Shown in pieces: positions 19,861 through 36,275 of a stretch of 36,387 nucleotides of DNA. The notes beneath the pieces were generated by a model that was not told where the DNA came from, searched no databases, and worked only from the letters and a program-made list of their open reading frames with translations. Both the position numbers and the translations under genes were made by a program. How positions within the stretch are numbered: position 1 is the first letter of the stretch; each line of letters begins with the position of its first letter. The stretch spans positions 1 to 36,387 of the forward strand of contig NYYQ01000012.1 of assembly GCA_002686855.1 (NCBI GenBank), in the 5' to 3' direction. The stretch is from Candidatus Woesearchaeota archaeon. Its GTDB lineage: Archaea > Nanobdellota > Nanobdellia > Woesearchaeales > GW2011-AR4.

Positions 19861-19999
19861 GTCAAAAACCACACATCAGAGATGAGTAGTGTGTTTTTAC
19901 TATAGCTAGTATTGTCTGGTGGTTTTTGACTAAGCGAATTCCACCAATCATACACACAAAACTCGTAGATTTTCATGAGAATTGGTGGAATTTTAGTGT
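19861..19999 (+). repeat. Two-hairpin repeat element, copy A
   Basis: GTCAAAAACCAC (19861-19872)...GTGGTTTTTGAC (to 19930), then AATTCCACCAAT (19937-19948)/ATTGGTGGAATT (19981-19992). Confidence 0.85.
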
Positions 20000-20150
20000 G
20001 TCAAAAACCACCCATCACAGATGGGTGGCATGATGAACATAACTATCTACAGCAAGTGGTTTTTGACGCCAGGAATACTACCAATAATGATGGTGGTTTT
20101 CGAGCACTACTCATACCACCAATCTAAGATTGGTGGTATTCCGTTGTATT
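20000..20150 (+). repeat. Two-hairpin repeat element, copy B, directly abutting copy A
   Basis: GTCAAAAACCAC (20000)...GTGGTTTTTGAC (20056-20067); local hairpin CCACCCATC-ACA-GATGGGTGG; second hairpin ATACCACCAATC-TAA-GATTGGTGGTAT. Confidence 0.85.
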
Positions 20151-20152
20151 AA

Positions 20153-20719
20153 ATGCTAAATGCAAAAGAATTTGAAAAAATAAGGGAAGACTTAGCTGCT
20201 TTTGAAGCTAAAAGAGAGTCTGTAATACAAAAATCCAGGGAGATCATTAACTTATCTAAAAGAATAATTTATGCCTTGCATAGAAATGATGTAAAGACTG
20301 CTTCTTCTCTTGTAAAGGATATTGAAAAGGGGAAAAAAACCCTTACAAATGTAAGAATGGATACAAACATAAATATTGTTGCCTTGCAGGAATATGCTGA
20401 AGCCCTATGCTATTATCACTTTGTCAAAAACAAAAAAATACCAACTGCAACATCATTAAAAATTGGCAATGAAAGCTATTTGCTTGGTTTATGTGATTTA
20501 ACCGGGGAACTAGTAAGAAAAGCAGTAAATGACGTTATAAATAAAAATTTTAAAGCCGCCTTTGAAATCAAAAATCTTGTTGAGGAGATATATGGTGAAT
20601 TTCTAAAATTTAATCTAAGAAACTCTGAATTAAGAAAGAAATCAGACCAGATAAAATGGAATTTGAAGAAACTAGAAGATGTTGTTTTTGAACTAAAGCT
20701 GAAAGGTAAATTAAAATGA
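20153..20719 (+). CDS. Translin family protein
   Basis: FEKIREDLAAFEAKRESVIQKSREIINLSKRIIYALHRND...LQEYAEALCYYHFVKNKKIPT...YLLGLCDLTGELVRKAVN. Confidence 0.88.
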   Translation: MLNAKEFEKIREDLAAFEAKRESVIQKSREIINLSKRIIYALHRNDVKTASSLVKDIEKGKKTLTNVRMDTNINIVALQEYAEALCYYHFVKNKKIPTATSLKIGNESYLLGLCDLTGELVRKAVNDVINKNFKAAFEIKNLVEEIYGEFLKFNLRNSELRKKSDQIKWNLKKLEDVVFELKLKGKLK

Positions 20720-36145: not shown

Positions 36146-36275
36146 GTCAAAAACCACATATCACAGATGGGTGGCATGTTTTTATTATAGCTATATTGTT
36201 CGGGTGGTTTTTGACTAAGCGAATTCCACCACTAATTTTCCACCAATCATAGGATTGGTAGAATTTTAGCGTATT
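36146..36275 (+). repeat. Two-hairpin repeat element, copy C
   Basis: GTCAAAAACCAC (36146-36157)...GTGGTTTTTGAC (36204-36215), TAAGCGAATTCCACCA...GATTGGTAGAATTTTAGCGTATT. Confidence 0.85.

What the first reader, a model, noticed from the sequence alone, without database searches (positions are those of the whole stretch)
19861..20150. Tandem pair of repeats with two hairpins whose stems compete
Both copies begin GTCAAAAACCAC and later carry the exact complement GTGGTTTTTGAC. In copy B the left arm runs into CCACCCATC-ACA-GATGGGTGG, a 9-bp local hairpin that uses the same CCAC bases, so only one stem can form fully. The second half mirrors this: GGAATACTACCAAT or ATACCACCAATC can each pair with ATTGGTGGTATTCC. 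Covariation-like changes (GAATTCCACC/GGTGGAATT in A, ATACCACC/GGTGGTAT in B) keep the stem while changing its sequence. This suggests a bistable RNA/DNA element, REP/MITE-like unit or IS200/IS605-type end; no family is recognised.
Basis: partly seen in the sequence, partly recalled or inferred. Interest (0 to 1): 0.78.

Follow-up and report, generated by a model that had tools for sequence, protein, structure and literature searches.

The report
Transposase-less jumping elements in Woesearchaeota
The paired hairpin repeats are two copies, one inserted into the end of the other, of a small gene-less jumping DNA of the IS200/IS605 kind that is scattered through many uncultured Woesearchaeota and chooses its landing sites by base pairing with a short "guide" in its own end.

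Summary
The repeats are real, and they are a dispersed family: about 25 copies in this genome, and matches in 85 of 292 genomes of the order (Woesearchaeota and relatives). Read on the minus strand, each ~150-bp unit has the ends of an IS200/IS605 single-strand transposon. The left end sits after TTNAW, then a guide, then a CC..GG hairpin. The right end is CATG, a CC..GG hairpin, then TTTTTGAC. There is no gene inside.

Mobility is shown by two filled/empty site pairs between sister species: exact insertions of 162 and 146 nt with no target duplication. In 107 insertions the guide bases pair with target bases -3, -4 and -1, matching two published IS608 contacts (-3, -4); the fourth guide base, almost always T, faces A at +1. 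Elements that changed their guide changed their target. TnpA-bearing IS200 elements with look-alike ends exist in relatives, but not in the window's own assembly.

The "tandem" is a nested insertion: copy B landed in the end of copy A at a site its guide predicts. The "competing stems" coexist except for four shared bases. Closest known kind: PATEs of Haloquadratum.

Ordinary in kind, but a large and clean natural example of guide-directed targeting.

The parts
20000..20147 (-). Copy B, complete non-autonomous element of subfamily S1 (IS orientation is the minus strand: left end at 20147, right end at 20000)
   Evidence: conserved block ends at GTC (20000) and GTTGT (20147) in sister copies L001, L006, L008, L012
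20000..20004 (-). Copy B right-end cleavage sequence TTGAC
   Evidence: near-invariant in 103 aligned copies; followed by A at +1
20008..20028 (-). Copy B right-end hairpin CCACCCATC-TGT-GATGGGTGG
   Evidence: covarying helix, 5 of 9 pairs with two-sided changes
20029..20032 (-). Copy B right-end guide CATG, 5' of the hairpin foot
   Evidence: pairs C:G-3, A:T-4, G:C-1, T:A+1 with TTGAC|A
20056..20067 (.). Copy B inner arm GTGGTTTTTGAC, complementary to the right end
   Evidence: kept with compensatory A-T to G-C change in 9 of 101 sequences
20072..20085 (.). Copy B inner arm GGAATACTACCAAT, complementary to the left end (one base off)
20116..20136 (-). Copy B left-end hairpin CCACCAATC-TTA-GATTGGTGG
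20137..20140 (-). Copy B left-end guide AATA
   Evidence: position 5' of hairpin foot; guides ending in A go with TTNAT targets
20148..20152 (-). Target of copy B, TTAAT (minus strand); base 20148 is the displaced first base of copy A
   Evidence: sequence
19861..19999 (-). Copy A, older degenerate element of subfamily S2, its left-end terminus cut by the insertion of copy B
   Evidence: CM hit 57.8 bits; S2 sister copies end in TTTTAGCGTA
19861..19865 (-). Copy A right-end cleavage sequence TTGAC
19937..19992 (-). Copy A left-end stem AATTCCACCAAT/ATTGGTGGAATT with a mini-hairpin remnant (AAAACTCGTAGATTTT) in its loop
20149..20153 (-). Target of copy A, TTTAA; abuts the ATG (20153) of the Translin-family ORF
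36146..36273 (-). Third copy in the window, subfamily S2
   Evidence: CM hit 73.3 bits; ends

Best explanation
The elements are non-autonomous IS200/IS605-family transposons (PATE type). They hold only a left end and a right end and are moved in trans by a Y1 HUH transposase (TnpA). The model is as follows. While single-stranded, TnpA binds the CC..GG hairpin at each end. The four bases 5' of each hairpin foot (the guide) pair with the cleavage site: AATA/AATT/TTTT etc. with TTNAT/TTTAA/TAAAA at the left flank, and CATG with TTGAC at the right end. The element is cut out as a single-stranded circle and inserted 3' of a new target that matches the left-end guide, without duplicating it. SHOWN here: dispersed copies, boundaries to within one base, precise insertion without duplication at two sites, guide/target covariation, and look-alike ends on TnpA-bearing elements. 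INFERRED: TnpA as the enzyme, the ssDNA circle, the strand, and which TnpA moves the copies in this genome. Copy B landed in the first bases of copy A, which supplied TTAAT|A, giving the tandem pair.
For: Copies in 85/292 genomes of the order, 60/195 genera, nearly all named hits in MAGs labelled Woesearchaeota or Nanoarchaeota. Two filled/empty pairs between G153 and G095 (same genus): a DUF424 gene (162-nt insertion) and a DUF6847 gene (146-nt insertion), ORF restored, no target duplication. Guide/target map over 107 insertions: pos2 with -4 complementary 90% (z 8.7), pos4 with -1 92% (z 7.5), pos1 with -3 70% (z 5.7), pos3 (nearly always T) with A+1 90%; robust to removing S2 and to collapsing to 52 distinct combinations. 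The published IS608 contacts A16:T-3 and A17:T-4, and the ISDra2 +1 contact, are at the same target positions (PMC5934647). TnpA-bearing elements with look-alike ends, e.g. AATG-CCCCCAATC-TCT-GATTGGGGG-TTTGTTTAC (L228) and CATG..TTTGAC|A (L257). Y1 transposase presence goes with element presence, 49/85 against 58/207 (odds ratio 3.5, p = 4e-6).
Against: No TnpA of the look-alike subgroup was found in the window's own assembly (79% complete); its two Y1 genes belong to an IS200 with different ends. 36 of 85 element-bearing genomes show no Y1 gene at all. No full-length copy (same ends with a tnpA between them) was seen among ~130 copies read. The +1 = A rule is weak in subfamily S2. Right-end guide pos4 is not G in about 15 of 103 copies although the cleavage base stays C. 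The inner arms that could mask the cleavage site are not part of the textbook model.
Confidence: 0.92

Rival explanations
1. A MITE of a DDE transposase: terminal inverted repeats recognised by a cut-and-paste enzyme, with target duplication.
For: Short, non-coding, high copy number; subfamily S4 has short similar termini (ATGTCAAAA / TTTTTGACA).
Against: Subfamilies S1-S3 have no terminal inverted repeat; both filled/empty pairs lack a duplication; target base preference changes with an internal 4-mer.
Confidence: 0.03
2. REP/REPIN-type repeats mobilised by a domesticated TnpA-REP (RAYT).
For: Palindromes with a tetranucleotide 5' of the foot, ~150-bp doublets with inverted halves, high copy number; some genomes carry single, longer Y1 proteins (~200 aa).
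Against: No GTAG or CGTC tag (PMC3733652); none of the scanned Y1 genes is flanked by whole copies; left end and right end differ and follow the IS608 guide/target code; a published survey found only the IS200 subclass in Archaea (PMC6006769).
Confidence: 0.06
3. A structured RNA or regulatory element (bistable switch, terminator) conserved for function in place.
For: Stable folds and covariation; the copy A/B pair abuts the Translin-family start codon.
Against: Copies interrupt coding genes and are absent at the orthologous sites of a sister species; no Rfam match; covariation extends to flanking target bases outside the element.
Confidence: 0.03

Closest known systems
PATEs (palindrome-associated transposable elements) of Haloquadratum walsbyi, PMC3119063
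   Same: Archaeal, no gene, near-terminal palindromes, no target duplication, short conserved target oligonucleotide, ends like co-resident IS605-type elements, high copy number, often invaded by smaller palindromic repeats (SMR-A there, mini-hairpins here).
   Different: Different sequences and a different archaeal lineage; here both ends also have inner antisense arms, and several guide/target classes occur in one family.
IS608 / ISDra2 (IS200/IS605 family, TnpA Y1 HUH transposase), PMC5934647
   Same: Guide 5' of a hairpin foot pairs with the cleavage site at the same positions (-3, -4); +1 base matters; no target duplication. ISDra2's target TTGAT resembles the TTNAT class here.
   Different: No tnpA or tnpB inside the elements described here; hairpins and guides differ.
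IS200-type elements of Woesearchaeales carrying tnpA (L228, L229, L230, L257, L255 etc.)
   Same: Same layout and near-identical hairpin motifs, guide/cleavage sequences (CATG..TTGAC, AATG..TTTAC), in some an enclosing right-end stem.
   Different: Carry the transposase; not found in this assembly; ends not identical to the elements, so cognacy is unproven.
REPINs / REP-RAYT systems, PMC3116915 and PMC3733652
   Same: Short palindromic doublets thought to be moved by Y1 enzymes.
   Different: REP tags absent, no linked RAYT, distinct left and right ends.

Membership tests
PATE (non-autonomous IS200/IS605 derivative) | too short to encode a transposase | tested here: met
   115 complete copies, 97-324 nt, median about 148 in the 107 analysed
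PATE (non-autonomous IS200/IS605 derivative) | palindromes close to both termini | tested here: met
   right-end hairpin covaries; left-end hairpin found by script in 89 copies
PATE (non-autonomous IS200/IS605 derivative) | no target duplication | tested here: met
   two filled/empty pairs
PATE (non-autonomous IS200/IS605 derivative) | no terminal inverted repeats | tested here: inconclusive
   none in S1-S3; S4 has a short imperfect one
PATE (non-autonomous IS200/IS605 derivative) | ends related to those of TnpA-bearing IS605-type elements | tested here: met
   look-alike ends in relatives; weak CM hits of 29.9-31.8 bits at L228 and L233 right ends; own genome lacks one
IS200/IS605 mechanism | guide 5' of hairpin foot pairs with target/cleavage site | tested here: met
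   contact map over 107 insertions
IS200/IS605 mechanism | insertion 3' of a specific oligonucleotide kept in the left flank | tested here: met
   T-T-N-A-W flank: -5 T 98/107, -4 T 85/107, -2 A 103/107
IS200/IS605 mechanism | moved by TnpA through a single-stranded circle | not testable with these tools
   needs biochemistry
IS200/IS605 mechanism | lagging-strand orientation bias | not tested
   fragmented assemblies, origins unknown
DDE MITE | terminal inverted repeats with target duplication | tested here: not met
REP/REPIN | GTAG or CGTC tag and flanked RAYT gene | tested here: not met
Rfam RNA family | match above gathering score | tested here: not met
   0 matches in the window

The most novel reading that the evidence does not exclude
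A single family of transposase-less elements has repeatedly re-programmed its own landing site in nature by mutating a 4-nt DNA guide, and the conserved inner arms that are antisense to both ends form a DNA switch that hides the cleavage sites and guide until the element is single-stranded, limiting its transposition.
Probability: 0.25. Interest if true: 0.65.

Novelty: new member of a known kind. Interest (0 to 1): 0.45.

Why it matters
The guide/target code of single-strand transposons was worked out by structure and engineering on IS608 and ISDra2. Here more than 100 natural insertions in uncultured archaea show the same contacts by covariation, with several naturally re-targeted classes. 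It gives tractable substrates and candidate transposases (L228, L257) for a lineage with no known genetics, and explains a large share of the palindromic repeats seen in these genomes, including repeats at contig ends.

Tried and rejected
Pattern scan of viral contigs: 0 matches. Distant blastn in phages and plasmids: none. Rfam: none. Own Y1 genes as source: typical IS200 with other ends. First scan of Y1 loci for whole-element arms: nothing; only after turning the element round did the look-alike right ends appear. Integron attC, casposon and RUP/ERIC-type MITE ideas were dropped because there is no recombination core, no TIR and no duplication. A first reading of the boundary with a tetranucleotide RTWT on the window plus strand was dropped after the strand was reversed. 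The TnpA subgroup/element association is only suggestive (9/15 against 76/277, p = 0.015).

Full report
WHAT IS THERE. The arms described at 19861-20150 are present exactly and fold far better than shuffles. The window is a contig of a 1.26-Mb, 79%-complete archaeal assembly with ordinary chromosomal genes around it. The exact arm pair occurs 12 times in the assembly with none in the reversed-pattern control, and blastn finds 39 matching stretches, representing about 25 copies. An exact pattern of the first 28 bases brought in 30 stretches of named genomes, all but one labelled Woesearchaeota or Nanoarchaeota. A covariance model of the first half hits 85 of 292 genomes of the order, in 60 of 195 genera.

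ANATOMY. In 115 copies both ends could be read. In window orientation the unit starts sharply at GTC and ends in one of a few ways (GTTGT, GACAT, GCGTA). Among near-identical recent copies in one genome the third base beyond the end varies (T, C or A) while its neighbours do not, so those bases are flank, not element. Turned round, the unit reads: flank TTNAW; 4-10 nt; a 4-nt guide; hairpin CC..GG; a middle; CATG; hairpin CC..GG; TTTTTGAC. This is the layout of IS200/IS605 ends. In the right-end alignment of 103 copies, 95% of cells pair, 68 cells show changes on both sides (shuffles 13.9 +/- 2.9), and sliding the partners destroys it. Two caveats apply: the alignment was fitted to that structure, and relatedness is not removed.

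IT MOVES. Two copies in genome G153 lie inside coding genes. A sister species of the same genus, G095, has the same genes uninterrupted (83% and 95% protein identity). Aligning DNA across the sites gives clean insertions of 162 and 146 nt with nothing duplicated or lost; the boundary can slide by one T. The joined proteins match DUF424 and DUF6847 across the junction.

IT AIMS BY BASE PAIRING. For 107 insertions the guide was taken as the bases before the first CC of the left end, and the target as the flanking bases. Complementarity was computed for every guide position against every target position, with permutations. The strong pairs are guide 2 with -4 (90%, z 8.7), guide 4 with -1 (92%, z 7.5) and guide 1 with -3 (70%, z 5.7). 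Guide 3, almost always T, faces A at +1 in 90%. The -3 and -4 pairs are contacts of the IS608 target complex (A16:T-3, A17:T-4), and a +1 contact is described for ISDra2 (PMC5934647). By class: AATT goes with TTTAA, TTTT with TAAAA, AATA and TATA with TTNAT. The result survives dropping subfamily S2, whose boundary was shifted by one base, and collapsing to 52 distinct combinations. Neighbouring cells of the map (guide 1 with -4, guide 2 with -3) are also raised, as expected when guides come in few types. At the right end CATG faces TTGAC|A with all four pairs standard.

THE TANDEM EXPLAINED. On the minus strand copy A's left junction would have read TTTAA|TACACTAAAATTCC. Copy B has guide AATA and prefers TTNAT|A. 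The string TTAAT|A is formed by A's flank plus its first two bases, and B lies exactly there: bases 20148-20152 read TTAAT on the minus strand, and after B's TTGAC the sequence resumes ACACTAAAATTCC. So the pair is one element nested in the end of another (sequence; classes).

COMPETING STEMS. The predicted fold keeps the 8-bp outer stem and the 9-bp hairpin together; only CCAC is shared. The right end's antisense arm is inside nearly every copy (9-mer exact in 92, within one mismatch in 105, of 107). The left end's antisense arm is found within one mismatch in 51 of 107, against 9% for ends of other guide classes. An enclosing right-end stem also occurs in some TnpA-bearing relatives. Its role is unknown; masking of the cleavage site is a guess.

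WHO MOVES IT. The own assembly has two Y1 genes of a typical IS200 whose ends differ. Across the order, Y1 presence goes with element presence (49/85 against 58/207, p = 4e-6), though shared ancestry is not removed. A subgroup of TnpA genes (L228 type) has look-alike ends, with the left-end hairpin, guide and target obeying the same code in six examples read by eye. Those boundaries were chosen by eye and are illustrative only. The subgroup occurs in 15 genomes at E of about 1e-13 or better, 9 of them element-bearing. Most element-rich genomes, this one included, lack it. The mobilising enzyme for this genome therefore remains unidentified.

WHAT IT IS CALLED. PATEs of Haloquadratum walsbyi (PMC3119063) share the defining features. 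Membership in the IS200/IS605 family rests on ends, target rule and absence of duplication; enzyme and intermediate were not tested. No earlier description in Woesearchaeota was found in the open papers searched, but subscription papers were not covered.

Noticed in passing
L020, L019, L043, L062, L066, L108 inside element copies; window 19952-19978: A second class of tiny (about 40-100 nt) double-hairpin repeats (AAAATC-GTA-GATTTT type, joined by GGATCCTG-like linkers) sits inside the elements. L049 against L066 gives a filled/empty pair: 53 nt inserted between GGTT and TTCGAGC, no clear duplication. They recall SMR-A repeats that target PATE palindromes.
   Followed up: partly
L011 (G000:C10 3160-3227): In this copy the segment between the two GTCAAAAACCAC arms is inverted relative to the rest of the element.
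   Followed up: no
L019, flank just left of the element copy (G000:C48): A tRNA-like sequence carries two extra stretches, one palindromic (CGAAAATCCAGAGATTTTCTGGGTTCGCTGCGCGAAC) and one in the T-loop region; ARAGORN calls no tRNA there.
   Followed up: partly
window 20148-20155: The flank of the nested insertion abuts the ATG (20153) of a Translin-family ORF, so its promoter may be supplied or displaced by the elements.
   Followed up: no
L044 (QIDP01000006.1): A contig labelled Nitrospirae carries a right-end half of the family; it may be a misbinned archaeal contig or a transfer.
   Followed up: no
G000 contigs C34, C77, C72, C7; G004:C32: Several contigs end inside element copies, so the repeat breaks these assemblies and copy numbers are underestimates.
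   Followed up: no
L095, L237, L255, L240, L257, L239: TnpA-bearing elements whose right-end hairpin is enclosed in a second long stem (e.g. TTGAGCGCC..GGCGCTCAA), a feature shared with the non-autonomous family.
   Followed up: partly
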